This document shows, in pieces, positions 2,142 to 43,500 of a stretch of 44,692 bases of DNA. A model generated the notes under the pieces. That model made no database searches, was not told the DNA's origin, and saw only the letters and a program-made list of their open reading frames with translations. Made by a program: the position numbers and the translations under genes. The stretch spans positions 1 through 44,692 of the forward strand of contig JAIRKD010000026.1 in NCBI GenBank assembly GCA_031260285.1. The letters run 5' to 3'. The stretch comes from Gemmatimonadota bacterium (GTDB lineage Bacteria; Gemmatimonadota; Gemmatimonadetes; Longimicrobiales; Longimicrobiaceae). The first letter of the stretch is position 1; every line of letters begins with the position of its first letter.

Positions 2142-2483
2142 ATGCCCGTTATTCTGCGTACGGTTGGTCTGCTTGTCCTTTCAAACATCTTCATGACGTT
2201 TGCCTGGTACTCCCATCTGCGGGAGCTCTCCGCAAAGCCATGGTACATCGCCGCCATCGTCAGCTGGGGCATCGCGCTTGGCGAATACCTGCTGCAGGTG
2301 CCCGCCAACCGGATCGGATACACGACCCTGACACTGCCTCAGCTCAAGATCATCCAGGAAGTGATCACCCTGACGGTGTTTGTGCCCTTTGCGATCTTCT
2401 ACATGCGGCAGCCCCTTTCCCTCAACTTCCTATGGGCGGGGTTGTGTATGGTTGGAGCAGTCTATTTCATCTTTCGCGGATAG
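2142..2483 (+). CDS. DMT-like small membrane protein, DUF486 family
   Basis: A 113-residue, very hydrophobic protein with four predicted helices. It matches the DUF486 family by its N-terminus (RTVGLLVLSNIFMTFAWYSH) and by the conserved middle GIALGEYLLQVPANRIG. Related proteins are placed in the drug/metabolite transporter superfamily and act in the inner membrane, but no substrate is established. The length is normal for the family. The ATG at 2142 starts exactly at the family's N-terminus; an upstream extension of the frame is not family-like. AGGAC lies just upstream as a weak ribosome-binding site. The gene is followed by a 105-base gap and then the ssDNA-binding-like gene on the same strand. 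Confidence 0.88.
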   Translation: MPVILRTVGLLVLSNIFMTFAWYSHLRELSAKPWYIAAIVSWGIALGEYLLQVPANRIGYTTLTLPQLKIIQEVITLTVFVPFAIFYMRQPLSLNFLWAGLCMVGAVYFIFRG

Positions 2484-2588: not shown

Positions 2589-3515
2589 ATGACGGAGCAC
2601 CGGGGACATCCCGTCCGGGTCACAACACCTGTGGGGAGTGCGGTATTCCCGATCCTGCACGACAACCCCGGCGGTGAATACTGCCTGGGGCTGCGGCTGG
2701 ATCCGGTTGAGGCCCGTGCCCTGATCGCCCAGATCGAGCCTGTCATCAACCGGGCTCGTGAGCTTGCGCAGCTCCCTGACCCCGAAGCTTCGGACAAACC
2801 CTCGGCAAAACGTCCGACACCCTCCACGGCGGGAGCTGACGGGGACTCCGGCCCCAGCCGCTCCCGCAGAATCAGCTTTCACCGTCAGAACCCCTGGACG
2901 GAAGAGCCCGATGGAAGTTTCCTCTTCTCCGGGATCCGCTCCCCCCATCCGCTCCCGGCGTTTGATCAGACGGGTGGTGGATTGCCCGAAAACCTCCGGA
3001 TCGGACATGGCAGCACCCTCCGGATCGCGATGGATCTCGAACCCTGGTTCAGTGCCGGGAAAAGCGGGGAGGGAAGCGCCGGGTACGGGGTGAGACTGGT
3101 TCCCCGGGCGATCCAGGTCATCGACCTGAAACCCTGGTCAGACAGCCGGGAAGAGAACAAAGCCTGGAATGGGAACGCGAGCGGAGGAGAAACCCCCGTG
3201 CGCTCCGATCCGCCGGCATCCAGCGCCTTTGATGAAACCCGGCGCTTCGCTTTTGAACGTGCGTTACAGGGAAGAGACTCTGCTGGAGCACCTTCCTCCC
3301 CGATCGAGGATACCCCGGGGGCGGAACCGGGAACCGTCTCCTGGAGCAGCGGCTGGATGGAAGTGGTTCGCTCCGCGCCGGAAGAGGAAGCTGCCACTCA
3401 ACCCGCTCCGGGGAGCCCCGATTCGCTTGCGGAGCTGATTCGCGCGGCGGTTGCGGAGGCACTGGGTGACGCGCTTGCGGCGCTCGGCCAGGGAGCACGG
3501 GACGGGGAGGAATAG
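2589..3515 (+). CDS. Phage gp2.5-like single-stranded DNA-binding protein candidate
   Basis: A 308-residue protein with no clear close relative known to me. Its architecture resembles phage ssDNA-binding proteins of the T7 gp2.5 type. Residues 10-55 (RVTTPVGSAVF, then GGEYCLGLRLDPVEARALI) read like the first OB-fold strands and helix. Residues 108-116 (DGSFLFSGI) and 134-180 (ENLRIGHGSTLRIAMDLEPW, later GVRLVPRAIQVIDLKPW) match the 'v.iG.GS.lrv...l.py...G..l.l.avqvieL' pattern of that family. About 110 residues of low-complexity sequence (185-275) and a helical tail ending in acidic RDGEE follow; acidic tails are typical of SSBs. AAGGA lies upstream of the ATG. It probably forms an operon with the gene five bases downstream. 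The assignment is from pattern only. No other phage gene is nearby. Confidence 0.6.
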   Translation: MTEHRGHPVRVTTPVGSAVFPILHDNPGGEYCLGLRLDPVEARALIAQIEPVINRARELAQLPDPEASDKPSAKRPTPSTAGADGDSGPSRSRRISFHRQNPWTEEPDGSFLFSGIRSPHPLPAFDQTGGGLPENLRIGHGSTLRIAMDLEPWFSAGKSGEGSAGYGVRLVPRAIQVIDLKPWSDSREENKAWNGNASGGETPVRSDPPASSAFDETRRFAFERALQGRDSAGAPSSPIEDTPGAEPGTVSWSSGWMEVVRSAPEEEAATQPAPGSPDSLAELIRAAVAEALGDALAALGQGARDGEE

Positions 3516-3519
3516 AGAA

Positions 3520-3867
3520 ATGAACAGTCTGCTCGAACGAATCGCTGTCGCGCGTGAGTCGGAGCTGCTGGAAGTCCTCTATGCGGCAGTAGGCGGAGAC
3601 CCGTCCAGCAGCGTTGAACTGCTCTCGATCGCGAGAGAAGAAGGCTACCCGACGGAGCTCATCCTGGTGGTCTCCTGCCGCCTGCGGTGCCAGGGGCTGC
3701 TCTGGGCAGGAGAAGCCCTGATCGCACCCGACTCATACGTCGGGCTTACCCATGCGGGAATCAACTCGATCATCAATCCGGGCGGCTCGGTTGTCTGGCG
3801 TCAGCCCCTCAGGGCTCTGCAGCAACGGGAGGGAATCCACCCGCTACCCGCTGCTCCCTCTCGGTAA
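3520..3867 (+). CDS. Putative winged-helix protein paired with the gp2.5-like gene
   Basis: A 115-residue protein starting four bases after the previous stop (GAGGAATAGAGAAATG), so the two are almost certainly cotranscribed. Residues 5-75 form helices (LLERIAVARESELLEVLYAA, SVELLSIAREEGYPTELIL) followed by a short strand-like end (YVGLTHAGINSI). This resembles the helix-turn-helix plus wing of small DNA-binding domains, in which 'YxxLTxxG' is a common wing feature. The C-terminus is Arg/Pro-rich and has no predicted fold. I do not recognise the family. Its last 59 bases overlap the convergent histidine kinase gene. A role in DNA binding together with its partner is inference. Confidence 0.5.
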   Translation: MNSLLERIAVARESELLEVLYAAVGGDPSSSVELLSIAREEGYPTELILVVSCRLRCQGLLWAGEALIAPDSYVGLTHAGINSIINPGGSVVWRQPLRALQQREGIHPLPAAPSR

Positions 3868-6061
3868 CCAGCTGCTCGATCAGCCCCACCAGCTGGGCGC
3901 TGTCCACCGGCTTCACCAGGTGACGGGCAAAACGGGCCTCCTCACTCTTCCTGCGATCCCCTTCCTGACCATATCCCGTCAACGCCACAAGAGATGGCGC
4001 ATCTTCGCCGAGAAGCGCGCGGAGTTCCCGCCCGAGAGTGTAGCCGTCCATCATCGGAAGACCGATATCGAGGATCACAACCTGCGGCCGCATCCTGTCA
4101 GCAATCTCGATTGCACTCAGCGGATCGTATGCGGTGCGGGTCTCATAACCCGACCTGCCGATCAGAAGCGCAAGCATATCCGCCACATCCCGGTTGTCAT
4201 CAACAATCAGAACACGGGGGAGCGGCGTCTCCGGGTCGCTGGCGTCGTCGCGACAGCTTCCCGGAGCACCCGGCGATGTCTGACAGCGCAACGGAACCGC
4301 CGTCTTTGCAACGGGAAGGCGTACAGTGAACTCACTTCCCTTCCCCACGCCTTCACTGGTCACACTCAGCTTCCCCCCATGCAGTTCAGTCAGTGTGCGG
4401 GCAAGTGGCAACCCCAGGCCGAGCCCACCTTCGGACCGGTCCGGCCCGCGCTCACCCTGTACAAAGAGTTCAAAAACATTCGAAAGAAGGCCAGGTTTGA
4501 TCCCGACCCCCGTGTCACGCACCGTCACCACCACCCAGTTTCCGGAACGATACCCCCTCACCATGATCTCGCCACCCATCGGGGTGTAGCGGCTGGCGTT
4601 TGAGAGAAGGTTGCTGAACACCTGGGTGAGCCGACCTTCATCTGCCTCAACCAGAAGGCCCGCGGCAGCGACATCAATCGTTACACGATGTTTATGAACA
4701 TCAAAAATCGGCGTAACCGCTTCGAGAGCCTTGAATACCACACCGGAGATCTCAAGCGTCCTGCGGGTGATTGTCACCTTCCCGTGCGCCACGCGGGAGA
4801 CATCAATCAGATCATCAACAAGTCCCGCCAGATGGGTTGCCTGGCGGTGGATCACATCCAGCTCCCGGGCGGCTTCACCCTGCAGATGCGGTTTCAGCAG
4901 CTGAGCCGCGGTCAGGATGGGCATCAGCGGATTGCGCAGTTCGTGGGAAAGCAGGGCGAGAAATTCATCCTTCCGACGATCTGCTTCAAGGAGTGCCTCT
5001 TCGGCCTGCTTCAGACGGGTTACATCCACAAAAGCGGCAACCGCCCCCCGGGGAACGCCTTCTGAATCGCGGAGGGGAACCGCACTCCCGTAGAGATGCA
5101 GGATATCCCCGTTTTCAAAGCGGATCTCCTCCTCCAGGTTGCGAAGGGCCTCCCCCCGGGCGGCGCGGCGCACCGACTGATCGATCTCCGCGAGTTCTTC
5201 ACCACCGGCAAAAATCCGGAAGTGTGACAATCCGGCCAGGTTCCCATGGTCCGGGATGACACCACCGGGATGGATACGGAAAAGTTCGTGCGCTGCGCGG
5301 TTCCCTACAATCTCCTCACACCGGGAGTCCCGTGTCAACCAGACAGCGGCGGGAACTGCGTCCATCAACGCCCAGAGTTCATCCGCGTGCGCCCGTGCCC
5401 GATCTGCGCTCTTCCGCAGGGCAACTTCAGCGAGGTGCCGGTCGTGTGTATCAATCGCGGTCCCGACCCACTGGATCACCTCACCGCGGGCGTTCCGGTT
5501 GGGGGATATCCGGCAGAAATACCAGCGCCATTCCCCGGTCCGCGTCCGGATCCGGTAGTCCATCTCCACCGTCACCGAGGTGGAAACTGCGTTATCCCAG
5601 CGTCTCCAGAGGAGAACATGATCGTCGGGATGGACTACGTTCAGAGTCCCTCCCCGGGCAAGGGATTCCGCCTCAGAAAGACCGGTCACCTCATACCACC
5701 GGTCATTCAGCCACTCCACCTGACCTTCACTGTCACACATCCAGATGATTACGGGAAGTGTATTCGCGATTGCCAGACAGTCAGGAGTGCCGGATTGGAC
5801 AGGGGAGGTGGTGATAAGCTCGAGGTCGAACTGTGGTGCGGGATTCCCTGGAGGTACTGTCGTCTTCCGGACTGGAAGCGGGGTCAGCCCCGGAGTTCCG
5901 ATCCGGGGAGCGGATGGATCTTCAACTGCGTTCCGCGCGGGGGGATAATGATTAAGGGTCAATGTCGTATCCGAATCTGGGAACGGAGAAAGCCTGACGT
6001 CCCCGCGACAAACGCCACGCGGGACAACCGAACTCGTCCAGGCAGAGGTTCGTTCCTTCAT
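3809..6061 (-). CDS. Hybrid sensor histidine kinase, PAS-PAS-HisKA-HATPase-REC
   Basis: A 750-residue soluble hybrid kinase. After a disordered Pro-rich N-terminus (1-90) come two PAS domains: residues about 95-215 (VIIWMCDSEGQVEWLN, then a PAC motif ending IQWVGTAID) and about 225-350. The HisKA box LLSHELRNPL has its phospho-acceptor at His373. The HATPase follows with an N-box around SNLLSNAS (483-490), DTGVGI (516-521) and GGLGLGL. A C-terminal receiver spans about 615-735, with acidic pair DD at 621-622, phospho-acceptor Asp665 in VVILDIGLPMMDG and Lys717. It has no membrane helix, so it probably senses a cytoplasmic signal through its PAS domains. There is no output domain, so phosphate would pass to an unlinked regulator. 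It lies downstream of the broken secreted-protein gene. Confidence 0.92.
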   Translation of the reverse strand: MKERTSAWTSSVVPRGVCRGDVRLSPFPDSDTTLTLNHYPPARNAVEDPSAPRIGTPGLTPLPVRKTTVPPGNPAPQFDLELITTSPVQSGTPDCLAIANTLPVIIWMCDSEGQVEWLNDRWYEVTGLSEAESLARGGTLNVVHPDDHVLLWRRWDNAVSTSVTVEMDYRIRTRTGEWRWYFCRISPNRNARGEVIQWVGTAIDTHDRHLAEVALRKSADRARAHADELWALMDAVPAAVWLTRDSRCEEIVGNRAAHELFRIHPGGVIPDHGNLAGLSHFRIFAGGEELAEIDQSVRRAARGEALRNLEEEIRFENGDILHLYGSAVPLRDSEGVPRGAVAAFVDVTRLKQAEEALLEADRRKDEFLALLSHELRNPLMPILTAAQLLKPHLQGEAARELDVIHRQATHLAGLVDDLIDVSRVAHGKVTITRRTLEISGVVFKALEAVTPIFDVHKHRVTIDVAAAGLLVEADEGRLTQVFSNLLSNASRYTPMGGEIMVRGYRSGNWVVVTVRDTGVGIKPGLLSNVFELFVQGERGPDRSEGGLGLGLPLARTLTELHGGKLSVTSEGVGKGSEFTVRLPVAKTAVPLRCQTSPGAPGSCRDDASDPETPLPRVLIVDDNRDVADMLALLIGRSGYETRTAYDPLSAIEIADRMRPQVVILDIGLPMMDGYTLGRELRALLGEDAPSLVALTGYGQEGDRRKSEEARFARHLVKPVDSAQLVGLIEQLVTEREQRVAGGFPPVAAEP

Positions 6062-9619: not shown

Positions 9620-10699
9620 CTACTTGGAAGAATGATTCGTGCCGGTCACCCACTCAAGTTTCCGCTTGAGCGCATGTCCCCAACTGTAATCATTGGTAAT
9701 CCGTTGCGCCTGTCCGAGGACGATACTCGGGGCAATACCCATTTCGGAGGCAAGATCACGGATCGCCTGAAGGTCCCGTTTCCTCGGCAACCTCGCATGA
9801 TACTCCGGCGGCACAAGAATCCGCGATGCGAACTCGTCAGCCTCTTCCTCGGCCTCCCTGGATCCCTCGTGCAGAAAGAGCTCCTTCGGACTGTGCAGGA
9901 GCACATGCCCGAGCTCGTGGAAAAGTGTAAACCAGAGCTGATCGTCGCTCTTTCCACGCAGCGAAAGCTGGATAAGCGGATGCTCTTTCACCCACCGTGT
10001 CGCGCCATGGATCCCCAGCCCGGATATCGGAGGGGTGAAGCACAGTACCACACCGACGGAACGAAGCCACCCGACCGCCTCATCAACTGCTGCCCTGAGG
10101 TCTTCCGCAGCCGTAAGCGACCGCAGACGGGGAATCAGATTTTTCAGACCTTCCCGATTATAGGCGGGAAGATCGATCAACTCTTCAAGGTACCGGTCAG
10201 CCAGTGCAAGCCAGGTTATGAGCGCTGGCGCATCCTCCCGGTTCACAGCGGCCCGGCGGTACGCGATGCTTCCTTTTGCCCAGGTCTCATCCAGAGCATC
10301 AAAACTCCCCACGCCCAGAATCGAGAGAAGCTGTCCGACAACCTCCGCCCGATCCGTTCTGGATGCCTTCAGATACCCATACTTCCGGAGCCAGGAAAGG
10401 GGAAACAATTGAGCCCTGCCGAACTGGGCCTCAAGGCCCTCTCTCTCCCGAACCCGCGCCAGTGCGTTCCGATATCCCGATTCGTACAGATTCCAGAGAC
10501 GAGCGGGAATACCACTGACCCGTTCGAGTGAAAGTGCAAGCTGGTGAGAGAGAGGAGCCTTACCGCTCAGAAGTTCACTCACGTTCTTGGGAGTGACGCC
10601 GAGCCGACGGGAGAGTTCCGCGGCGTTGATCCCCGCTTCTTCCATCCACTCCGCGATATACTCCCCGGTGGGAACGATGTAATCAAGTGTCGGGGTCAT
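9620..10699 (-). CDS. HigA-type antitoxin fused to ImmA/IrrE-type metallopeptidase domain
   Basis: A 359-residue protein. Residues about 12-72 form a HigA/XRE helix-turn-helix (AELSRRLGVTPKNVSELLSG, then LALSLERVSGIPARLWN). The C-terminal half carries an ImmA/IrrE (DUF955) zinc-peptidase core: HELGH at 261-265 with a downstream glutamate-rich helix EEEADEFASRILVP (from 284) that would supply the third ligand. This architecture is typical of the longer antitoxin of HigB-HigA loci; the HTH would bind its own promoter, and the peptidase part may control stability. The ATG at 10699 is chosen at the start of antitoxin similarity (MTPTLDYIVPTGEYI). It begins 34 bases after the end of the broken toxin gene, in the usual toxin-first order. 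The gene itself looks intact. Confidence 0.88.
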   Translation of the reverse strand: MTPTLDYIVPTGEYIAEWMEEAGINAAELSRRLGVTPKNVSELLSGKAPLSHQLALSLERVSGIPARLWNLYESGYRNALARVREREGLEAQFGRAQLFPLSWLRKYGYLKASRTDRAEVVGQLLSILGVGSFDALDETWAKGSIAYRRAAVNREDAPALITWLALADRYLEELIDLPAYNREGLKNLIPRLRSLTAAEDLRAAVDEAVGWLRSVGVVLCFTPPISGLGIHGATRWVKEHPLIQLSLRGKSDDQLWFTLFHELGHVLLHSPKELFLHEGSREAEEEADEFASRILVPPEYHARLPRKRDLQAIRDLASEMGIAPSIVLGQAQRITNDYSWGHALKRKLEWVTGTNHSSK

Positions 10700-10733
10700 G
10701 GCATGCTCTCCTGGATATTCTCCCGCAACCACC

Positions 10734-11017
10734 TCAGTGGTAATCAATAATCCCGACAATGAGAACAGCTGCCTCATCGCCGTCTTCAGGCTGAACAATC
10801 AACCGCTGATTGGCACTCAGTCTCGCTGACCACTGCCCTGCCCTAATTCCTCCCATCTTCCAGGTCCTGCACGGAGATCCTCCATTTCTGTAACCACTGT
10901 CAGCTCCTGAATCCGACGCATCAGCGTTTTTGCCACTTCCATACCGACCCCCGCCTGCATCTGGCGGGAGTTGGTACAAAGCTTCTCCAGCTTCTTCGTG
11001 GCAAAATGGAGGATCAT
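10734..11017 (-). pseudogene. HigB/RelE-family toxin with a single-base frameshift
   Basis: From the ATG at 11017 the first frame reads as the start of a HigB toxin (MILHFATKKLEKLCTNSRQM, PGRWEEL) but runs out near 10817. The adjacent frame continues with RAGQWSARLSANQRLIV and ends in the family's typical DYH tail at 10734. The joined protein (about 94 residues) has the canonical order of a RelE-fold ribosome-dependent mRNA interferase. The switch lies near 10849-10853, and adding one base would restore the frame, so a one-base deletion explains it. The antitoxin directly downstream is intact. This would leave the toxin inactive if the shift is real; a sequencing or assembly error is the alternative. 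Confidence 0.75.
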
Positions 11018-11179
11018 GGAATGATGTTACCTGAATCGTAACACAATTACAAGGAGAAGTTGAACACCCGGGGAGAGAGCGAAATAATCCTCTCTCTTCT
11101 GGAACAGAGGATACCGCGCTACCTTTGTCACCCGTCACCCAACCGGGTCAACCTTCATCATCCAGCAATCTGAGGTGAG

Positions 11180-11773: not shown

Positions 11774-13426
11774 TCAGGCGTTTACCCGGGAATGGATCGA
11801 CTCAACCGTTCTCCAGGCGGATTCAATTGCGCCTTCCATCCAGGCCGGGTCACCGCTGACGGCGGCGGAGCCCATATAGATGCGACCGTCCGCCTTGTTG
11901 AGCACCTCCATCCGCGCGCCGGGGTTGTTCGCCCAGGCACCCCGACTGTACTCCACCCGCTGCCACCAGACAGCATACGCAGTTTCGAACTCCGAGCGGA
12001 TCTGCGGATGGATCTTGCTGGCGTGGGTGAGCACATGTTCGATCCGCCGCCCCACGGGGACATCCACAAGCGGCTGCCCGTCAATACCCACCAGGGTTGC
12101 GTTCCCGTAGTATCCGAGCAGAACTCCCTTCGCCGAATGATAGTCGTTTGACGGATAGGAGAACGATGGAATCGGGTTCGGCGTACCTCCCCCGCCCCCA
12201 CCACCTCCTCCACCGCCACCTCCTCCTCCACCACCCTGGCCCTGCGGAGCATTCGGGTTGTAGGGAAGGTAGTTCAGGTGTCCACCATAGATCCCGTCGT
12301 CTTCCTCCCAGAAGCGCCGCCGCATCTGCAGACCCATCTTGGCCTGGGCCGCATGGCCGGTCTCATCAACCGCCGCCTTCACCGCCGGCGAGAGGTTGAT
12401 CGAGAGCTCCTTCAGGATCGTCATCGGCAGACAGGACACCACATAATCAGCGGTGGTCTCCGTTTGTGCGCCGGTCTTCGAATCGCGGTAGACAACCCGC
12501 ACATTGTCAGCGGACTGCGTCACAGACTGGACAATCGAGCCCAGGCGAACCCGATCTCCCAGTGCGCGATGGAAGCCGAGCGGGATCTGCATCATTCCGC
12601 CGGAAGGCTGGAAGACCGGAGCGGGGCCACCTGTCCCCGCAGTGATCGACCGGACCTGGTTTGCGAACGGTGACTGGAGCAGGGCGCTGAGGTCGTATTT
12701 GTCAGCGCGGCCGCGGGTTCCCGGATTGGGCGTATAGGCCAGACTGGAATTGTCGAGGTAGCCGGCACGGATGAGGAACTGGACAAGAAGCTCCTTGTCA
12801 CCCGGTGAAATCGCCTCGTCCAGCGATCCCTGGTTCGCCGCCTTGGCAAGCAGTTCAGACGTCTGACCCCACATGTCGGAAACCAGCTCGCGGAGATAGA
12901 CCTTCCGGTTGGCGAGAGAGCCAAGCGCGGGGTTCTCCGCGAACATCACAACGTTGTCGTCAATGAACTGCTCCATCCGGACGCCGAGTTCCTTGGCATA
13001 CCCGAGTACCGCATGATGGTCGTGGGGAATTCTCCAGGGCCCCGCGTTGATGTAGTACCCCTCATCAAACTGACAGACCTGGCGCTCTCCCCCGGCACCG
13101 AGCTCCGTGTGTTCCATCCCCCGGGAAACCGACCAGTTGAGGCCGCCGACCCGTTCACGCGCTTCGAGGATTGTCACATCATAGCCGCGTTTGGCGAGTT
13201 CCCACCCCGTCGTGAGGCCCGAGACACCAGCCCCGAGGATCACCACCCGGGCCGTGGCGCGATCACCACTGAGCACAGGTCGAGGGCCCGCCGGCTGACC
13301 CATCAGATCCCAGGCACGCATGGTCGTCAACATCAGCGAGGAACCGCCGATCATCCCGAAACGCGCCAGCATCTGGCGACGGGTGATTGCCTGCCCTGAA
13401 CCTCTCTCCGATTGGCCTGAACTCAT
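11774..13426 (-). CDS. Tat-exported flavin monoamine oxidase family protein with poly-glycine insert
   Basis: A 550-residue FAD enzyme. A twin-arginine signal (ITRRQMLARFGMIGG, arginines 16-17) predicts export in folded form. The Rossmann dinucleotide motif VVILGAGVSGLTTGWELAKR spans 61-80, followed by VTILEARERVGG. The C-terminal FAD-binding signature is YMGSAAVSGDPAWMEGAIES. This fits the L-amino-acid/monoamine oxidase family, which oxidises amines to imines with release of hydrogen peroxide; the substrate is unknown. Residues 398-414 are 17 consecutive glycines, an insert in a surface loop between substrate-domain elements. The ATG at 13426 has AGGAG upstream and starts just before the Tat signal. 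It ends at a bidirectional terminator shared with the DinB gene. Confidence 0.9.
   Translation of the reverse strand: MSSGQSERGSGQAITRRQMLARFGMIGGSSLMLTTMRAWDLMGQPAGPRPVLSGDRATARVVILGAGVSGLTTGWELAKRGYDVTILEARERVGGLNWSVSRGMEHTELGAGGERQVCQFDEGYYINAGPWRIPHDHHAVLGYAKELGVRMEQFIDDNVVMFAENPALGSLANRKVYLRELVSDMWGQTSELLAKAANQGSLDEAISPGDKELLVQFLIRAGYLDNSSLAYTPNPGTRGRADKYDLSALLQSPFANQVRSITAGTGGPAPVFQPSGGMMQIPLGFHRALGDRVRLGSIVQSVTQSADNVRVVYRDSKTGAQTETTADYVVSCLPMTILKELSINLSPAVKAAVDETGHAAQAKMGLQMRRRFWEEDDGIYGGHLNYLPYNPNAPQGQGGGGGGGGGGGGGGGGGTPNPIPSFSYPSNDYHSAKGVLLGYYGNATLVGIDGQPLVDVPVGRRIEHVLTHASKIHPQIRSEFETAYAVWWQRVEYSRGAWANNPGARMEVLNKADGRIYMGSAAVSGDPAWMEGAIESAWRTVESIHSRVNA
12185..12235 (-). repeat. 17-glycine codon tract inside the amine oxidase gene
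   Basis: Seventeen GGN codons in a row encode poly-glycine at residues 398-414 of the oxidase. The third bases vary (GGT, GGA, GGC and GGG all occur), so this is not a simple recently slipped triplet repeat. It is flanked by QGQ on one side and by TPNPIP on the other. Confidence 0.95.
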
Positions 13427-13745
13427 TGGTGCTCTCCTGAGGGGATGGGGATGTGGGTTTCGCCGCCAGTCAGAAGAAGGAGCGTGGACTCCGGCTGCCT
13501 GGCTGTCACGGATGGAAAATCGGAACAACTTCGGACTGCACGAAGCGGTGCTGACGAATGAGCGCTCTGCGACGGAGGAAAAGTCTGCCGCTCACTCCAT
13601 GCCGCGGACGCCGGAAGACGCCCGCGCGGGGATTCGGTAGATTATCCATCTTCACCCGATCACGCAAGGATACCCTGACGAACAGGGTCGCCCTTCCGGA
13701 CGACCCTGTTTCCTGTAACCCGCCAGAGGTGCCTTCGGTTTCCTC
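13427..13745. other. Spacer between oxidase and DUF5916 genes
   Basis: About 320 bases hold the hairpin at 13681-13710, downstream of the DUF5916 gene, and the ribosome-binding site and presumed promoter of the amine oxidase. I see no further gene or repeat. Confidence 0.5.
13681..13710 (-). terminator. Hairpin downstream of the DUF5916 gene
   Basis: Perfect 10-bp inverted repeat (AACAGGGTCG and its complement CGACCCTGTT) with a 10-base loop, 35 bases after the stop codon of the DUF5916 gene. There is only a short T run, so its strength as an intrinsic terminator is uncertain. Confidence 0.6.
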
Positions 13746-23726: not shown

Positions 23727-24824
23727 TCACCGTCCAGCGTTTGCCCCCCGGGCCATCGAAAGAAGCGTCGGATCCCCCTGACGCAGTTTATACGCATCCG
23801 CTCGGGTGCCATCCTTCTGACGCGCTTCCGGCCAGTTGACCAGGAAGGTGGAACGAGCCCCCTTCGGAACGCGTACCACCTGACGCCGATCCGCGCGAGT
23901 GTGATCTCCCTTGAGGTGCGGGTTCAGGCTGCGGATCTCCGTGATATCCACCCCGCTTGCGGACGCGATCCGCGCGAGTGGCGTTGAGGGTTCCACAACA
24001 ACCTCCTCATACGACCAGGGAGTCTGCGTCTGCACATGTTCGAAGCCGTACTTTGCGGGCTCCTTCGAGATCCGCGCGGCGGCAATCATCAGCGGCACGT
24101 AGTCGCGGGTTTCCTTCGGCAGCCGGTTGTAGATCTCGTAGTACGACTCCTCCGTTCCCCGCTCCGACCCTGTCACCTCGCGCATGATCCGGGCGATCCG
24201 GCCTTCACCGGTGTTGTACGCCGCCGCGGAGAGGTACCAGGATCCGAACTGATCGTGCAGGTCGGTGAGGTAATCCAGCGCCGCGTCCGTTGCTTTTTCC
24301 GGATCGTTCCGCTCATCCACATTCCGGTTGATCTCCAGACCATACCGCCGGCCGGTTGCCTCGATGAACTGCCAGAGCCCCGAAGCATCCGCGCGCGAAT
24401 AGGCGAGCGGGTCGAACCCCGACTCGATCATCGAAAGATAGATGAGATCGCGCGGAAGGCCCCGTTCCTGGAGCTTGGCTTCCATCATCGGGATGAACCG
24501 GCCGCTCCGTTCCAGAAAGTGCTCAAAATCGGGGCGTTTATCGGTGGTGAACCGTTCCACCCAGTAGTCGACGCGTTCGTGGTCCAGGTTCGGGAGATCC
24601 CATTCCGCACTCGCGAGATCCGTGGACTCGGCGGTTGTGGAGGTGAAGGGTGAGACCCCCGTCGCTGAGTCGTAACGGGGAGCGCTGGAGACCGCGCCTC
24701 CAACCCAGCTTGCTCCGAGGACGCCCGCCAGAGCTAGCTGCCCCGCCCGTTCCTTCCGGATACGACGCACAAACCCGGCGATTCCACCACCTTCTTTTTC
24801 GTCGTCCCTGCGCTCCTCGATCAT
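23727..24824 (-). CDS. MltD-like membrane-bound lytic transglycosylase with LysM
   Basis: A 365-residue protein that would cleave glycan strands of peptidoglycan to 1,6-anhydro ends. It has an N-terminal membrane anchor (QLALAGVLGASWVGGAVSS, about 29-47), then a family-1 lytic transglycosylase domain. The catalytic glutamate is Glu134 in SMIESGFDP, followed by ASGLWQFIEATGRRYGL, AYNTGEGRI and RDYVPLMIAA. A LysM motif follows from about 280 (STPLARIASASGVDITEIRS, QVVRVPKG). A second LysM seems to begin near the end (YKLRQGDPTLLSMARGAN) but the protein stops after only its first part, so that repeat is truncated. The ATG at 24824 is not preceded by a strong ribosome-binding site. It converges on the M1 peptidase gene. 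Confidence 0.9.
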   Translation of the reverse strand: MIEERRDDEKEGGGIAGFVRRIRKERAGQLALAGVLGASWVGGAVSSAPRYDSATGVSPFTSTTAESTDLASAEWDLPNLDHERVDYWVERFTTDKRPDFEHFLERSGRFIPMMEAKLQERGLPRDLIYLSMIESGFDPLAYSRADASGLWQFIEATGRRYGLEINRNVDERNDPEKATDAALDYLTDLHDQFGSWYLSAAAYNTGEGRIARIMREVTGSERGTEESYYEIYNRLPKETRDYVPLMIAAARISKEPAKYGFEHVQTQTPWSYEEVVVEPSTPLARIASASGVDITEIRSLNPHLKGDHTRADRRQVVRVPKGARSTFLVNWPEARQKDGTRADAYKLRQGDPTLLSMARGANAGR

Positions 24825-30669: not shown

Positions 30670-33090
30670 TCAGCGGAGGTCTCCCGCGGGAGCTGCATCC
30701 CCATACAGACCCCGGTAGATCTCGATATTCCGGGTGAGGATCTTCACATAGTCCCGGGTCTCCCGGTAGGGAATGCGCTCGGTGAAAAGCTCCGGGTCGC
30801 TGTACTCAACAAACCTCTTCCAGGCTTCCACCCGGTGCGGTCCGGCGTTGTAGGCGGAAAAGACGGACGGGAAAGATCCCCCGTAGCTCCGCATCTGGTC
30901 TGCGAGATAGAGGATACCCAGATACGTGTTGATCTCCGGCTCGAAGAGCAGATCCGCATTCCAGCCGCTGATGCCCGCTCCGCGAGCAAGGGTGGCGCCG
31001 GTTGCGGGCATCACCTGCATCAGGCCACGCGCGCCGACCGGCGAACTGATCCGGGGTGTGAACTGCGACTCCTGCCGGGCGAGCCCTGCCACAACAAACG
31101 GATCAAGACCCCGCTCCCGAGCCTCTGCCTCGATCATCTCCCGGAAGGGGAAGGGATACAGGATCCGCAGAAGGCGGGTATTCATCTTCTCCCCGTTCCG
31201 CTGCATCCGCTGACCGATCGCGATCCCGCGGATCGAGTAGCCCCGCTCGTTGAGGGCCTCCGCAAGCGCGTAGTCAACAGCCTCTCCGGTGGCGGGAGTA
31301 TCGTCGGCGAGACGGAGCGCCTCAGCCTCAGCCTCCTGATAAAGACCCGCTTCGCGCAGGAGATCGACCGTACGCACCCGCTCCGCAACTGCCAGGATGG
31401 TGGCGGAATCAGGGGCTGGCCCGGCAGGCATCTCCACCGGCCACCAGGCCTGCTGCATCCGCGGGGCGGCCATCACCGCATAGTATGAGAGCGGATCCCG
31501 TCTGCGAACCTCTTCAAACCGGTCCCGTGCCTTCTCCTGATCGCCGGCGGCCTCGTACGCCCGGCCCGCCCAGTAGGTCGACTGCAGCCAGTACGATCCT
31601 TCGGGATGAGCCTGCCGGTAGCCTTCCCAGATCTCCGCCGCACCGGCGTAGTCACCTGCCAGCCAGCGCAGCCCCGCAAGCCGCATTCTCGACAGGCCAC
31701 CCCGATCGGTGCCGGGGAATTCGTTCGCCACCCGCCGGTACCCCGCCATGGCGGCCGCTTCGTTGCCGGCATCATGGTTCAGATCCGCAACAAGGAAGAG
31801 TCCCTCCGCACCTTCCGCTGACCCGGGAAACCGGGTTGCTAGTTCGTCAAAGGTCCGGGTAGCAGCGGCGTTGTCACCCCGCCGGTTCTGCGCCCGACCG
31901 ACGTAGAGCATCGCCTCCCGCGCCACCGCGGGAGAGGCGCTGTAGAGCTTTTTCAGCTCCGTCTCGGCGGCTGCATTGTTGCCCGCATCATAAAGGCTCC
32001 GGCCAAGCCTCAGCTGAACCGCATCACGCTCCGCGGCGGTGACTCCGGAGGCTTCAGCAAGCCAGGCCCGGTACCCGGCAACCGCACGGTCATAGTTGCC
32101 ATGCCGCCGGTAGACATCCGCAATCGCAAGACGGTCTGCTGCTGTCAGACCCCGGAGGTTGCTCACCAGATTGGCCGCTTCCCGCGCGGAAGTGCTTTCC
32201 GGGGAGCCGCTGATCGCGGCGAGAAATTCCGTCCGGGCGCCTGTCTCATCCCCCGCCCCGAGCTTCAGCCGGCCAAGCGCCAGAGAAAGTGCGGCGCGCT
32301 GGGCTGGTGTGCCGCCCCGGGAACGGGCTGCGGTCGCCAGGCGGATCGCGCCAGCGGTGTCGTGAGCCTCTGCGTAGGCCTTCACAATCGCCAGATTCCC
32401 CCGGTGCGCGAGGCTGCCGGCTGGAAGCGAAACAATCGCCCGCCGGACGCCCGCTGTGTCACCCGCGGCGGCAAGCGCTTCCGCGGCCAGTACATCAATC
32501 CGGGGAGCAGCATAGGGAGCCTGCCGCTGAACACCCTCCAGCAGAGCGGCGCCGCTCTCCACCTCTCCCTTCGCCAGGAGAATCAGGGCGCGCCGGAGCC
32601 CGGCGATCGCGGCGCGGTCGGGCTCCCGGCCCGCGGAAAGCGTCAGATAGCGCTCGTAGGCGGAAAGGGCATCCTCCCTCCGTCCCGTCTCCTCCAGACC
32701 CCGGGCGAGCCAGAACCAGCCTTCCCCACCCCGCTCCTGGTCCAGCCAGGGCTGACCTTCCAGATACCGCACCACCTCTGACCACCCACCCCACCCGGCT
32801 TCTGCCCGCGCCGCGAGGAAGAGCTCATCGGGTGATGGCCGGGGGGTACGCTGAAGGTATTCAGCAAGCGCGCGGGAAGCCCGCCACCAGCGGCCGGAAT
32901 CGAGGTACGCGACAATATCCGGCGGCAGATTGCTGACGGGCAGGGAGTCCGAGGCGGATGTGATCCCCGGAGTGGGGATATCGCTGTCCGCCACCAGCGG
33001 GGTCTTCTCCCGGCCACATCCGGCACCGGATACCAGGAGCACTGCCAGTGCGGCGCGCGCCAGTCTACGCAGATCAGCTCCGGACCTCAT
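30670..33090 (-). CDS. Soluble lytic transglycosylase (Slt-type) with TPR-like repeats, lipoprotein
   Basis: An 806-residue protein. Its lipoprotein signal (MRSGADLRRLARAALAVLLV, ending SGAGC) predicts membrane attachment, unlike the soluble E. coli Slt70. A long alpha-helical superhelix of TPR-like repeats fills about 60-600 (WFWLARGLEETGRREDALSA, RLGRSLYDAGNNAAAETE, LFLVADLNHDAGNEAAAMAG). The C-terminal catalytic domain begins near 650 with GLARQESQFTPR (catalytic Glu674), GARGLMQVMPATG and FSAYNAGPHRVEAW. It would process glycan strands in the periplasm. The ATG at 33090 is preceded by GGAG at five bases; other in-frame starts at 33093 and 33120 have worse spacing. The downstream lipid kinase gene is likely cotranscribed. 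Confidence 0.93.
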   Translation of the reverse strand: MRSGADLRRLARAALAVLLVSGAGCGREKTPLVADSDIPTPGITSASDSLPVSNLPPDIVAYLDSGRWWRASRALAEYLQRTPRPSPDELFLAARAEAGWGGWSEVVRYLEGQPWLDQERGGEGWFWLARGLEETGRREDALSAYERYLTLSAGREPDRAAIAGLRRALILLAKGEVESGAALLEGVQRQAPYAAPRIDVLAAEALAAAGDTAGVRRAIVSLPAGSLAHRGNLAIVKAYAEAHDTAGAIRLATAARSRGGTPAQRAALSLALGRLKLGAGDETGARTEFLAAISGSPESTSAREAANLVSNLRGLTAADRLAIADVYRRHGNYDRAVAGYRAWLAEASGVTAAERDAVQLRLGRSLYDAGNNAAAETELKKLYSASPAVAREAMLYVGRAQNRRGDNAAATRTFDELATRFPGSAEGAEGLFLVADLNHDAGNEAAAMAGYRRVANEFPGTDRGGLSRMRLAGLRWLAGDYAGAAEIWEGYRQAHPEGSYWLQSTYWAGRAYEAAGDQEKARDRFEEVRRRDPLSYYAVMAAPRMQQAWWPVEMPAGPAPDSATILAVAERVRTVDLLREAGLYQEAEAEALRLADDTPATGEAVDYALAEALNERGYSIRGIAIGQRMQRNGEKMNTRLLRILYPFPFREMIEAEARERGLDPFVVAGLARQESQFTPRISSPVGARGLMQVMPATGATLARGAGISGWNADLLFEPEINTYLGILYLADQMRSYGGSFPSVFSAYNAGPHRVEAWKRFVEYSDPELFTERIPYRETRDYVKILTRNIEIYRGLYGDAAPAGDLR

Positions 33091-33218
33091 CATCTCTCCG
33101 GGGTCGCGGTCCATATTCATTCCGGGAAAACACGGTTATTCACGGGCCCGCCCGATCGGATTCTCCACATAACCGACACGCCATTGCGCATTATGGGCAT
33201 TCCGGCTTCAAAATGCGA

Positions 33219-33276: not shown

Positions 33277-34470
33277 TTACGCCGTTGGAGGCACTCCGCG
33301 CGCACCCCCTGAACCAAGCGGAACCTTGATACACGCCGCGAAGTGACCGCCACCCTTGTCCGCCAGCGGCGGAACGATCCGGGCGCAGTCCGCGTCCTTC
33401 AGCGGATGAGGGCAGCGCGGGTGGAAGGGACAACCGCTGGGCGGATTGGCCGGCGAGGGCACATCCCCCTGGAGAACGATCCGGTTATGCTTCCGGCCCG
33501 GCTCCGCGACTGGCACCGCAGAGAGCAGCGCCTGGGTGTACGGCATCAGCGGGTTCGAATACAGCACCCGCGAATCCGCGATCTCCACAATCCGGCCGAG
33601 GTACATCACCGCCACCCGGTCGCTGATGTGCTCCACAACAGAAAGGTCATGAGCGATGAAGAGATACGTCAGACCGAACTCATCCTGCAGGTCACGCAGG
33701 AGGTTGATCACCTGGGCCTGCACGGACACGTCAAGCGCCGAAACCGGCTCGTCACAGATGATCAGTTCCGGCTCAACCGCCAGCGCCCGGGCAATCCCGA
33801 TCCGCTGACGCGGACCACCCGAGAACTCATGCGGGTACCGGAGCGCATGCTCCGCGCGCAGTCCGACAACCTCCAGCAGCTGGCCCACCCGCGCATCCAC
33901 CGCCGCACCCGACGCCAGCCTATGGACGGTCAGTACCTCGCGCAGGGTATCCCCCACCGTCATCCGGGGGTTCAGCGAAGAGTATGGATCCTGGAAAACG
34001 TACTGCGCCCGCCGACGAAGTCTGCGCAGGTTGTCACGGTCCAGTGAAAGAACATCCTGCCCGTCAAAACGCACACTCCCGGCGGTGGGCTCCTCCATCC
34101 GCAGGATCGCGCGCCCCGCGGAGGTCTTTCCGCACCCGGACTCACCCACCAGTCCGAGTGTTTCTCCCCGGCGCATGAAGAACGAGACGCCATCCACCGC
34201 TTTGACATCCCCGACATGCCGGGAAAAGAACCCGCGCCGGATCGGGAAGTACTTCTTCAGCCCGCGGACAACCAGCAGCGCGTCATCGGGGACGTCCATA
34301 TCCTCGGGAGTCTGCCCGCGCAGATCGCTGTTCCCCCGCGCGGGAGGCAGCGCCATATCACTTCCCGACGCGGCAACCGGCGTCGGCTCACGGGGGGTCA
34401 ACACTTCCGGATGAGCCGTTGTATCACCACCGGGCGCGTCGTTTGACGGATTGTTCAGCGGAGTATTCAC
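33277..34470 (-). CDS. Peptide/nickel-class ABC transporter ATP-binding protein (OppF/DppF-type)
   Basis: A 397-residue ATPase, one of the pair powering the importer. After a disordered N-terminus of about 65 residues, Walker A is GESGCGKTS, the Q-loop is in [15 protein letters not shown], Walker B is [12 protein letters not shown] and the H-switch is FIAHDLSV. The C-terminal oligopeptide-transporter extension ends with the cysteine motif [13 protein letters not shown]. The signature motif reads FSGGPRQR rather than FSGGQRQR: the glutamine codon (CAG) is CCG, giving proline. This could weaken ATP hydrolysis in one half-site, or it may be a sequencing error. It starts with GTG within a GTGA overlap with oppD, the last gene of a seven-gene operon. 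Confidence 0.93.
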
Positions 34471-35627
34471 AGGTCACCCTCCGCGCCATGATCGTCCGGC
34501 GACACCGGCGGCTCACCCGCGAGGGAAGCTCCACCCGCTGCATCCATGCCGGAGACAGCGCCTTCGGATGTGAATCCCCCCGACCGGGCACGCACCTCGG
34601 CGCGACGCTCGGGGAACTCCTCCAGCCAGCACTTGTTCCCCCGGCCCGACCCCAGATCCGCCAGCGGCGGCTCCTCCCGCAGACACTTCTCCCAGGCGTA
34701 GGGACAGCGCGCGTAGAAGCGGCAGCCGGAGGGCCAGTCCAGCGGATTGGGCACTACGCCCGGAATCACCGCCAGCCGCTCGGTTCTCCTCCCGAGACGC
34801 GGGATCGAGCGGAGCAGCCCTTCCGTATACGGGTTCCGGGGGTCCCGGAAGACATCATCCACCCGCCCCTCCTCGAACACCTGGCCGGCGTACATGACGA
34901 TCACCCGGTCACAGGTCTCCGCCACCACACCGAGGTCGTGGGTGATGAGGATGATCGCCATCCCCAGCTCATTCTGGAGCCGGTTGAGGAGTTCGAGGAT
35001 CTGCGCCTGGATCGTCACATCCAGAGCAGTGGTCGGCTCATCCGCGATCAGAATCTTCGGGTCGCAGGCGAGCGCAATCGCGATCATCACCCGCTGCCGC
35101 ATTCCGCCGGAAAGCTGGTGCGGGAACTCATCCACCCGCTGCTCGGGGATGGGGATGCCGACCAGCTTCAGCATCTCGATCGCGCGCGCCCGGGCGGCTT
35201 TTTTCGAGAGCCCCTGGTGAAGCCGGAGCGGCTCCATGATCTGGTCGCCGATCCGGAAGACCGGGTTCAGCGAGGTCATCGGCTCCTGGAAGATCATCGC
35301 GATATCGTTACCGCGGATCCCCCGCATCCGCTCTTCACTGGCTGTCGCGAGATCTTCCGTCCCCCGATCGCCATGGAAGACAATCCTCGACCCCGGCTGG
35401 ATCTCACCGGGCGGTGAAGGAATCAACCGCATCGCGGAGAGCGCGGTAACGGACTTCCCGCTCCCCGACTCACCCACAATCCCGAGCGTTTCACCCGGCC
35501 TCACCTGGAACGACACTCCGTCCACCGCCCGGGCGGTGCCGGCGTCGGTGCGGAACCAGGTGCGCAGCTTCTGGACGTCCAGGATCGGAGAGGCCCCGGC
35601 GGAAGGGCCTGTATGGCGGTTGGTCAC
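34467..35627 (-). CDS. Peptide/nickel-class ABC transporter ATP-binding protein (OppD/DppD-type)
   Basis: A 386-residue ATPase. Walker A is [10 protein letters not shown], the Q-loop is in [15 protein letters not shown], the signature motif is LSGGMRQR, Walker B is [14 protein letters not shown] and the H-switch is LITHDLGV. The C-terminal oligopeptide-transporter domain ends with [20 protein letters not shown], a cysteine motif that in relatives can carry an iron-sulfur cluster. A longer, low-complexity tail follows. Together with the OppF-type subunit it should form the heterodimeric motor on the cytoplasmic side. The GTG at 35627 has GAGG eight bases upstream and overlaps the oppC stop by four bases (GTGA). 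Confidence 0.95.
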
Positions 35628-36841
35628 GTGCGCAACCTCGGGTCAAGCGCGTCACGCAGGCCGTCACCCAGCAGGTTGAAGGCAACCACGGTCAGAACAA
35701 TCGCCAGACCGGGGAAGGTGGAGATCCACCAGGCAGTGATGAGCGAGTCGCGCCCGTCGTTGATCATATTCCCCCAGCTGGGGGTTGGCGGCTGCACGCC
35801 GAGGCCGAGGAAGGACAGAGAGGCTTCCACCAGAATTGTGTTACCGATGCCGAGTGTCGCGTACACAATCACCGGCGCCAGAGTGTTCGGAATGATGTGC
35901 CGCCAGATGATCCGCGCATCACTCATCCCGAGTACTTTGGCGGCCTGTACAAATTCGCGCTCCCGCAGCGTCAGCACCTCACCCCGCACAATCCGCGCGA
36001 CGCTCATCCACCCCGTCAGCCCGAGCACCGTCACCACCAGCCAGATCGTCGGCTCGAAGAGCGCGATGATCACGATCAGCAGGATCACCCGGGGGAAGGA
36101 GAGCATCATGTCGGTGAAGCGCATGAGCACCGTATCGGTCCACTTGCCGAAATAGCCGGCCACCGAGCCGATCAGCGCGCCCAGCACCACCCCGAGTCCA
36201 ACAGCGATGAACCCGATCGAGAGAGAGATGCGGGCACCGTACAGCACCCGGCTGAAGATATCCCGCCCGAATTTGTCCGTCCCCATCAGATGCTGGAAGG
36301 AGGGGGAAAGGTATCGGGTCAGAACGATATCTCCCTGCGCGGTCGGATCGTAGGGCGCGAGGAGCGGGGTGAGGAGTGTCATCAGATAGAGGACGATCAT
36401 CACCACCAGCCCCGCAATCGCAAGCTTGTTCCGCCGGAACTGGCGGGCCGCGATTGTCCACTGCGAATCTCCGAACCGGCGGCGGGGGCGGCGGGCGCGG
36501 ACCTTCAGGTCGTACATCGCCCAGCCCCAGATTGTCACCAGCGACAGCACCAGCGTGACCACGGCAACGAGTCCGTCAATCGGCATCCGGCCCGCAGTGA
36601 AGACCCCCGCGATCCGCCCCCGCGCGAGGAAGGTGACAGACAGCATGATCGCCCAGCTGAAGGCAAGCAGCATCCCCCCGACCCATTCACCCCGCGCGAT
36701 CTGGGCGCTCCCCGGCAGCAGCGCGGAAAGAATATACTGGGCCGGGGTCACCGGAGCGCGTGTGACCACACCGGCAGCCGGCAGTGGAGCCGAGACCGGC
36801 TCCGGCACCGCAAATTCAACGTCTCCGCTCGAATGAACCAT
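35624..36841 (-). CDS. Peptide ABC transporter permease (OppC/DppC-type) with extra N-terminal membrane domain
   Basis: A 405-residue permease, about 100 residues longer than usual OppC/DppC. Residues 1-120 form an added domain: a Pro/Ala-rich start, helix [20 protein letters not shown] then [19 protein letters not shown], and a second helix [20 protein letters not shown]. Its LLPGxxQ...G pattern is like small 'TM2/DUF5683-type' membrane modules. The normal OppC part follows: [20 protein letters not shown] (leader helix), [19 protein letters not shown], and the EAA loop in [20 protein letters not shown] that docks to the ATPases. The ATG at 36841 keeps the extra domain in frame with no stop. 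It lies 42 bases after the oppB stop and overlaps oppD by four bases. Confidence 0.93.
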
Positions 36842-36882
36842 TCAGACCCGTTCCGTGTGTGACGCCAGCAAGCGCGCGAGGA

Positions 36883-37866
36883 TCATTCCGTCCGGATGCG
36901 TGGATCAACCACGGCGTACAGCACGTCCGCCACCAGATTTCCGACCACAACCAGCCCCGCGGCGATGAAGCTGGTGGCCATCACCAGAGGATAGTCACGC
37001 TGGAAGATCGCGTCCACGATCAGGCGCCCCATTCCCGGCCAGGCAAAGATGGTCTCCACCAGAACAGAACCGGAAAGCAGGATCGGCAGATACAGCCCCA
37101 GCAGTGTCACGATGGGGATCAGCGCGTTCCGGAGCGCATGTTTGAAGATGACAATCCTCTCGGAAAGCCCCTTTGCGCGGGCGGTACGGATGTAGTCCTG
37201 GTGGATCACCTCCAGCATCGAGCCGCGCATATACCGCGCGATCCCGGCGGCGCCACCCACTCCCAGCGCCAGCGCGGGCAGGATCATGTGCATGAACCGG
37301 TCGGTGATGCGCTCCCCGGTTGAGAAGAACTCGTACCCCACGCTGGTCATCTGCGAGGCCGGAAACTGGATCGGCCAGCCCCACTGACTCGCCTTCAGGC
37401 TGAAGATCAGGATGAGCATCAGCGCGAGCCAGAACGAGGGCATCGAATAGAAGAACAGGGCAAAGAACGTCAGTACGTTATCCACAACCGAGTACTGCCG
37501 GACGGCCTGCACGATCCCGATCAGCATCCCCAGGATGAAGATCATCACCACGGCGACGATCATCAGCTGAAGGGTGTTCCAGAGCACCGTCGGGAGGATC
37601 TCGGAGATCGGGCGGAGCTGGCCGAACGAGTAGCCGAAATCACCCTGCGCGAAGGAACCGAGCCACTTGAAGTAGCGGATATGGATCGGCTGGTCGAGGC
37701 CCAGATTGGTACGCATCTGGGCGATGACCTCGGGGGAGATGTTCGGGTTGAAATAGCGCGCCGTCGGATCGCCCGGCGCGATGTTGATGATGAAGAAGAT
37801 CAGCGTCAGGATCCCGAGCAGAAGCGGGATCGAGCCAAGGAGACGGCGCAGGAAGTAGCTGATCAC
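36883..37866 (-). CDS. Peptide ABC transporter permease (OppB/DppB-type)
   Basis: A 327-residue membrane protein with six expected helices. It begins VISYFLRRLLGSIPLLLGIL, the typical OppB start, followed by the periplasmic region NIAPGDPTARYFNP. The EAA loop is DYIRTARAKGLSERIVIFKH, and the end is VADVLYAVVDPRIR. The GTG at 37866 is chosen because AGGAG is nine bases upstream and the family N-terminus begins there; the frame extends to a TTG at 37968 but that part is Pro/Arg-rich and not family-like. It pairs with the OppC-type subunit to form the transmembrane pore. It lies 186 bases downstream of the third binding-lipoprotein gene. Confidence 0.95.
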   Translation of the reverse strand: MISYFLRRLLGSIPLLLGILTLIFFIINIAPGDPTARYFNPNISPEVIAQMRTNLGLDQPIHIRYFKWLGSFAQGDFGYSFGQLRPISEILPTVLWNTLQLMIVAVVMIFILGMLIGIVQAVRQYSVVDNVLTFFALFFYSMPSFWLALMLILIFSLKASQWGWPIQFPASQMTSVGYEFFSTGERITDRFMHMILPALALGVGGAAGIARYMRGSMLEVIHQDYIRTARAKGLSERIVIFKHALRNALIPIVTLLGLYLPILLSGSVLVETIFAWPGMGRLIVDAIFQRDYPLVMATSFIAAGLVVVGNLVADVLYAVVDPRIRTE

Positions 37867-38052
37867 GCCGGTACGCTCCTGATCACGGGGGTTCCGGAGC
37901 TGCCGGATATCCGGTGTTGATTCATCGGGTGATTCCCTGACACCACGGTCGCGGGGAATGGGGCACAAACGTCAGCGGGGCATGAACGGCGTAAGGTGCG
38001 AAGCCGTGGTCACTCCGGCAAGCTCCCCATGCCGGCGGCGGGCCGCCGCTCT

Positions 38053-39780: not shown

Positions 39781-39787
39781 CCGGCCG

Positions 39788-41440: not shown

Positions 41441-41698
41441 CTTCCGTCCTCAGGAGGAGACTGAACGCTTACGACAGGGAGACCAGCCGGTCACCCCTCG
41501 CGGAATCCGTTCACACACACGAGACCAGCACACGGATCCGTGGAGGCCGCCCGTGGTTCTTCCGCTTCAGCAACTTCCGTGATTCCACGACAGGATCCGG
41601 GGACCGGTGTTCCCCGATACAGATTCCGCAGACAGACCCCGAAACCAGCTGGTCAGGCCGGGATCCGTGACAGCTCCGGCAACAATCCGGCTGATCTG

Positions 41699-43351: not shown

Positions 43352-43500
43352 GAATCTCCGGAATCTGTCATCCATCGTTCTTCGGCGGTCGCGGCCCGAA
43401 CCTTCAGGCCGCCGGGCCATCAACGGCTTCAATAGCGTTATATCGTGGCTTCCAGCTGTGAGGTCCGGCACAGAACCCGATCACACAACCCCGCCACGGG

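What the first reader, a model, noticed from the sequence alone, without database searches (positions are those of the whole stretch)
2589..3867. gp2.5-like ssDNA-binding protein with a putative winged-helix partner, outside any visible prophage
Seen in sequence: the 308-residue protein has the ordered pattern of phage T7 gp2.5-like proteins ('..tPvGsAvFP.l....GgeY.l.L.ld..ea..li', then 'lriGhGStLrIamdLePw', then 'GvrLvpraIqVidLkpW'), an acidic tail, and a 115-residue partner starting four bases downstream. Established knowledge: gp2.5-type SSBs recruit phage replication proteins and are expected beside polymerase, primase or nuclease genes. Inference: a chromosomal two-gene unit of this kind could be a domesticated phage module, a replication or repair accessory, or a defence or anti-phage component.
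Basis: partly seen in the sequence, partly recalled or inferred. Interest (0 to 1): 0.65.

Follow-up and report, generated by a model that had tools for sequence, protein, structure and literature searches.

The report
Orphan T7-type ssDNA-binding protein gene
A bacterial chromosome carries one very diverged copy of the single-stranded-DNA-binding protein that T7-like phages use to copy their DNA, with a remodelled tail, a small companion gene and no other phage genes nearby; this is a genuine but modest find, probably a captured phage gene whose job is unknown.

Summary
Window 2589-3515 (+) encodes a 308-aa protein; 3520-3867 (+) encodes a 115-aa protein starting four bases later. The 308-aa protein is a member of the T7 gp2.5 / DUF2815 type of phage ssDNA-binding proteins. 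PHROG 112 (gp2.5-like SSB) matches at E=2.6e-6. All five phage hits are annotated SSBs. A profile of 57 viral gp2.5 proteins scores it 62.5 bits, against 0.5 for the best of 200 shuffles. The predicted OB-fold core is confident, and its nine best PDB matches are T7 gp2.5, Enc34 SSB and two DUF2815 proteins.

It differs from phage members: at most about 30% identity, a shortened loop and strand, and a ~123-aa low-complexity tail with a terminal helix and no terminal Phe or Trp. It was not found in 395 genomes of the phylum or 394 of the class. The flanks are chromosomal, and no phage polymerase, primase or nuclease is beside it. The partner has no detectable relative, and its 'winged helix' is unproven.

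Most likely it is an old phage gene captured as a chromosomal accessory SSB. Defence or repair roles are untested.

The parts
2589..3515 (+). gp2.5 / T7-type ssDNA-binding protein gene, 308 aa
   Evidence: PHROG 112 E=2.6e-6; tblastn hits only phage SSBs; viral profile 62.5 bits vs shuffles at most 0.5; fold search best hits T7 gp2.5, Enc34 SSB, DUF2815
2610..3137 (+). OB-fold core, residues 8-183, broken by a disordered insert at about residues 66-101; contains the motifs TPVGSAVFP, IGHGSTLRIAMDLEPW and GVRLVPRAIQVIDLKPW
   Evidence: AlphaFold block pLDDT mostly 90-97 over residues 11-20, 31-60 and 101-150, in strand/helix order like gp2.5; alignment A6
3144..3512 (+). C-terminal extension, residues 186-308: long Pro/Ser/Gly/Glu-rich linker plus a predicted helix (residues 280-304, window 3426-3500); no aromatic residue in the last 30 residues
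   Evidence: pLDDT <50 for most of 195-272, 87-88 for 281-300; tail length and charge comparison; phage tails
3520..3867 (+). Partner gene, 115 aa, function unknown; helix-turn-helix-like by eye only
   Evidence: Four-base spacing and GGAGG at 3506-3510; coding-like frame; no family, PDB, phage or viral match
2142..2483 (+). Upstream neighbour: DUF486 / DMT_6 membrane protein (chromosomal flank)
   Evidence: PF04342 E=6.6e-45; 77-80% identity to same-family genomes
3809..6061 (-). Downstream convergent neighbour: PAS hybrid histidine kinase; overlaps the partner ORF tail-to-tail by 59 bases
   Evidence: Pfam HATPase_c, HisKA, Response_reg, PAS

Best explanation
The 308-aa protein is a strongly diverged member of the T7 gp2.5 / DUF2815 type of phage ssDNA-binding proteins. 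Its gene probably came from a phage and has been kept alone in this bacterial chromosome as the first gene of a two-gene unit. Inferred mechanism: the OB-fold core binds ssDNA in its cleft, with Trp153 in the place of the essential stacking Tyr158 of gp2.5. The long low-charge tail with a terminal helix replaces the short acidic Phe-ended tail of phage members, so it would no longer dock on a phage polymerase and helicase, and may instead self-associate or bind a host partner such as the 115-aa product. It would act beside the cell's ordinary SSB, which is also present. Family membership and fold are shown computationally; DNA binding, the tail's role, the partnership and the phage origin are inferred.
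For: PHROG 112 hit. All five tblastn hits in 50,697 phage records are annotated SSBs; four are in Autographiviridae and the fifth is a Podoviridae isolate with phage RNA polymerase and endonuclease genes. Viral profile score vs shuffles. A profile that includes the window protein finds T7 gp2.5 (1je5) at E=2.7e-24, placing gp2.5 Tyr158 at the P-W pair 152-153. AlphaFold core is confident, and Foldseek's nine PDB hits with E below 0.001 are all T7-type SSBs. Tail differences. The host has a canonical SSB and a single PolA, of bacterial size. Not found in 395 phylum and 394 class genomes. Intact, coding-like ORFs. Left flank is of the host family (DUF486 77-80% identical).
Against: No relative closer than about 30% identity was found, so the phage donor and the direction of transfer are not shown; the branch is long. 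The basic residue corresponding to gp2.5 Lys109 falls in a deletion of the alignment, so ssDNA binding could be weakened or lost. No second genome carries the gene, so selection on it cannot be measured. The structure was predicted with an alignment of phage gp2.5 proteins, which pulls the model toward that fold. The profile is partly circular.
Confidence: 0.62

Rival explanations
1. Decaying prophage relic: the last surviving gene(s) of a lost T7-like or DUF2815-type prophage, no longer functional.
For: Single orphan gene with no phage polymerase, primase or nuclease neighbours; long branch; shortened strand region and a low-complexity tail; found in one genome only.
Against: The ORF is intact over 308 codons with codon usage like its neighbours, has a Shine-Dalgarno-like sequence and a closely spaced partner. 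No other phage remnant was recognised in the adjoining genes examined.
Confidence: 0.2
2. Part of a small mobile element or a living prophage/plasmid prophage whose other genes lie on another contig.
For: The contig's left end is 2.6 kb away, the assembly has 110 contigs, and DUF2815/gp2.5 genes in bacteria are often prophage genes (PMC8093625).
Against: A DUF486 gene and a crcB-like gene lie between the SSB and the contig end; DUF486 is 77-80% identical to the host family. No tRNA, no convincing flanking repeats, and only one PolA in the genome, of bacterial size.
Confidence: 0.08
3. Host anti-phage factor: a gp2.5 decoy with a changed tail that coats ssDNA or poisons the replisome of T7-like phages.
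For: Core kept while the polymerase-docking end is changed. From memory, tail-deleted or mutant gp2.5 can interfere with T7 growth. Chromosomal location outside a prophage.
Against: No defence-family match, no defence genes recognised next to it, and no evidence that T7-like phages infect this host.
Confidence: 0.04
4. Assembly or binning artefact: a phage fragment joined to the contig.
For: It is a MAG (4.78% contamination) and the locus is near a contig end.
Against: Chromosomal genes on both sides; G+C and codon usage match the window; neither gene resembles any known phage genome closely.
Confidence: 0.06

Closest known systems
Bacteriophage T7 gp2.5 (PDB 1je5) and Autographiviridae SSBs (PHROG 112)
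   Same: Order of strands and helix, G-x-GS motif, aromatic after Pro at the position of Tyr158, the 'GV.L.p.a.Qv' strand; best PDB fold hit (E=4.6e-9, TM 0.63 by target length)
   Different: Shorter first loop ('PDTKF' missing), the 'FKFKLKAK' strand partly deleted, tail about twice as long and less charged, no terminal Phe, not beside endonuclease I, primase or DNA polymerase
DUF2815 proteins: Enc34 ORF6 SSB (5odj, PMC5686142), 4klk, 4jg2
   Same: T7-type OB fold; ranks 3-9 of the fold search
   Different: No Pfam DUF2815 match even at E=5; tail differs
Viral gp2.5 group ending in '...DDWDD' (e.g. L048, L057, L092)
   Same: Closest in the second half of the core ('NPF.ked G.y...'); L092 shares 'GVRLRPVAIQVVELK'; also has a long linker and a C-terminal helix-like end
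   Different: No 'WDD' ending in the window protein; about 25-35% identity only
Bacterial SSB (PF00436)
   Same: OB-fold ssDNA-binding proteins with acidic tails; weak structural matches (E=0.014 and above)
   Different: Different family; the genome has its own ordinary SSB on contig C83

Membership tests
T7-type (gp2.5/DUF2815) phage SSB | Sequence-profile match to the family | tested here: met
   PHROG 112 E=2.6e-6; profile linking it to 1je5 E=2.7e-24; Pfam has no match
T7-type (gp2.5/DUF2815) phage SSB | OB-fold core of the gp2.5 variant | tested here: met
   Confident core; nine best PDB hits are all T7-type SSBs; prediction used a gp2.5 alignment
T7-type (gp2.5/DUF2815) phage SSB | Aromatic stacking residue at the position of gp2.5 Tyr158 / Enc34 Trp150 (PMC5686142) | tested here: met
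   Trp153 follows Pro152, aligned with P157-Y158 of 1je5
T7-type (gp2.5/DUF2815) phage SSB | Basic residue at the position of gp2.5 Lys109 / Enc34 Arg112 | tested here: inconclusive
   Falls in an alignment deletion; Arg117 lies nearby in the predicted strand
T7-type (gp2.5/DUF2815) phage SSB | Acidic C-terminal tail | tested here: inconclusive
   Net -13 but over 132 residues, about half the charge density of phage tails
T7-type (gp2.5/DUF2815) phage SSB | Aromatic residue at or near the C-terminus (34 of 57 viral proteins end in Phe; most others in '..WDD') | tested here: not met
   No aromatic in the last 30 residues; this defines the phage tail rather than the fold
T7-type (gp2.5/DUF2815) phage SSB | Located beside phage polymerase, primase or nuclease genes | tested here: not met
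   Neighbours are DUF486, a crcB-like gene, a hybrid histidine kinase and DUF5995
T7-type (gp2.5/DUF2815) phage SSB | Binds or anneals ssDNA | not testable with these tools
   Needs purified protein
Winged-helix protein (partner, 3520-3867) | Profile match or confident winged-helix fold | tested here: inconclusive
   No match in Pfam, PHROGs, PADLOC or PDB; model pLDDT 51
Known anti-phage defence system | PADLOC model match | tested here: not met
   No match for either protein up to E=5

The most novel reading that the evidence does not exclude
A bacterium has turned a phage replication SSB into a host factor: the OB core was kept, the polymerase-docking tail was replaced by a linker and helix, and it was paired with a small new protein, giving either a specialised repair/annealing SSB or a decoy that disturbs replication of T7-like phages.
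Probability: 0.12. Interest if true: 0.65.

Novelty: new variant of a known kind. Interest (0 to 1): 0.34.

Why it matters
Genes of T7-type SSBs are thought of as parts of phage replication modules or prophages. An intact orphan copy with a remodelled tail in a bacterial chromosome would be a test case for how a phage replication protein can be taken over by its host, and for which part of the protein, core or tail, has to change. If it is only a relic, it is an ordinary trace of phage traffic.

Tried and rejected
Direct searches with the 308-aa protein in IMG/VR and in 84,980 prokaryote species gave no confirmed relative. The alignment of five phage SSBs was too divergent for pattern search. 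I then made artificial alignment rows that keep only the motifs, to widen the patterns: this found 72, 70 and 6 viral relatives but none in genome contigs (29 pattern matches, none confirmed; the patterns were narrow, so this is not proof of absence). Plasmids: no match for the SSB, one chance match for the partner. Partner in 395 phylum genomes: only chance-level matches (best E=0.0018, partial, inside longer frames). Synteny with same-genus and same-family genomes: the nearest histidine kinase in G001 has flotillin-like genes beside it and no gp2.5, and the DUF486 copies have none of the tested neighbours in common, so an 'empty site' could not be defined. The search for T7 RNA polymerase in the own genome was uninformative, because the control did not ring. 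Promoter/terminator scan, repeats and Rfam: nothing useful.

Full report
What is there. The window is a complete contig (G000:C74, 44,692 bases) of a metagenome-assembled genome of 2.76 Mb in 110 contigs. At 2589-3515 on the + strand lies a 308-codon ORF and, four bases after its stop, a 115-codon ORF at 3520-3867. Both have Shine-Dalgarno-like sequences by eye. Both lie in the frame that looks most coding under codon usage trained on 20 other genes of the window. The second ORF overlaps the convergent histidine-kinase gene (3809-6061, - strand) by 59 bases.

What the 308-aa protein is. Pfam, NCBIfam and PADLOC give nothing, but PHROG 112, 'Gp2.5-like ssDNA binding protein and ssDNA annealing protein', matches residues 26-216 at E=2.6e-6. 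In 50,697 phage records tblastn finds five matches at 24-33% identity. All five are annotated single-stranded DNA-binding proteins; four are in Autographiviridae and one is in a Podoviridae isolate, and in every case the gene lies between the phage RNA polymerase and the endonuclease I / primase / polymerase genes. From IMG/VR I collected further relatives with motif patterns. A profile of 57 of them gives the window protein 62.5 bits; the best of 200 shuffles gives 0.5 bits. These 57 were chosen with the window protein itself, so the score is partly circular, while the PHROG hit is not. A profile of the 40-row alignment finds the T7 gp2.5 crystal sequence (1je5) at E=2.7e-24, and the DUF2815 and Enc34 SSB structures more weakly.

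Fold. With that alignment, AlphaFold gives a confident core (99 residues at pLDDT 90 or more, 59 at 70-90) made of five main strands and a long helix after the second main strand, a disordered insert around residues 79-98, a disordered linker, and a helix at 280-304. Foldseek against the PDB returns T7 gp2.5 (E=4.6e-9, TM 0.63 by target length), Enc34 SSB and two DUF2815 proteins as the nine matches with E below 0.001; ordinary bacterial SSBs follow only at E=0.014 and above. The viral library agrees. The alignment used for the prediction consisted of gp2.5 proteins, so fold and profile are not fully independent.

Residue tests. The Enc34 paper (PMC5686142) names a stacking aromatic (gp2.5 Tyr158) and a basic residue (gp2.5 Lys109). 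In the alignments the first corresponds to Trp153 of the window protein (P-W at 152-153 against P-Y at 157-158). The second falls in a deletion, with Arg117 nearby; this is inconclusive. The same paper describes the acidic tail as discriminating for ssDNA and, in T7, as docking polymerase and primase-helicase. In 57 viral proteins the part after the last core motif has a median length of 56 residues and a net charge of -10; 34 end in Phe and 20 in Asp (the '..DDWDD' group). In the window protein it has 132 residues and a net charge of -13, and there is no aromatic residue in the last 30 positions. So the core is family-like and the tail is not.

Distribution and neighbourhood. The gene was not found in 99 relatives, in 395 genomes of the phylum with PHROG 112, in 154 genomes of the order or in 394 of the class with the alignment profile; these samples overlap. 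No close relative was found in viral, plasmid or prokaryote collections. Neighbours are ordinary chromosomal genes: a crcB-like gene (by eye), DUF486 (77-80% identical to same-family genomes, so the left flank belongs to this lineage), a hybrid histidine kinase, DUF5995, an O6-methylguanine methyltransferase domain protein and a DinB-family protein. The genome has one ordinary SSB and one PolA, of bacterial size. There is no tRNA in the window and no convincing flanking repeat. The locus is 2.6 kb from the contig's left end, so an element beyond that end cannot be excluded.

The partner. No family, PDB, phage, viral or plasmid match; matches in phylum genomes are at chance level. Its sequence has a helix - helix - 'GLL...LT.AG' pattern that reads like a winged helix, but AlphaFold without an alignment gave pLDDT 51 and a mostly strand model. 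The winged-helix claim is therefore open.

Most likely reading. A phage SSB of the gp2.5 type was taken up long ago and kept as a chromosomal gene with a partner. Its core should bind ssDNA (inferred); its new tail should no longer fit a phage replisome and may self-associate or bind the partner (inferred). A relic is the main rival. Defence and repair roles are possible and have no positive evidence. Bacterial gp2.5 genes as such are common in prophages (PMC8093625 counts 5,861 in Firmicutes); the unusual points are the orphan state, the divergence and the tail.

Noticed in passing
window 9620-11138 (-): XRE helix-turn-helix plus IrrE/M78-peptidase protein (9620-10798), preceded by an ORF (10734-11138) whose last ~35 residues read like the end of a HigB/RelE-type toxin while its start does not; possibly a frameshifted toxin-antitoxin pair. 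Only the antitoxin-like protein has Pfam hits.
   Followed up: no
window ~12200-12260 (- strand gene 11774-13528): Run of about 17 glycines inside a flavin amine-oxidase-like protein, between 'PQGQ' and 'TPNPIP'; could be a variable repeat.
   Followed up: no
window 33277-43471 (-): Peptide/oligopeptide ABC transporter cluster with two ATPases, two permeases and three paralogous solute-binding proteins in a row.
   Followed up: no
window 23727-24824 (-) and 30670-33120 (-): Two lytic-transglycosylase-like proteins by eye, one with a LysM-like end and one with a long TPR-like N-terminal part.
   Followed up: no
viral loci L048, L057, L058, L062, L070, L072, L085, L092 and others: A distinct viral gp2.5 group ends in '..(L/I)xxIVDDWDD' instead of '..DF', with a long Lys/Pro linker; its tail may dock a different polymerase.
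   Followed up: partly
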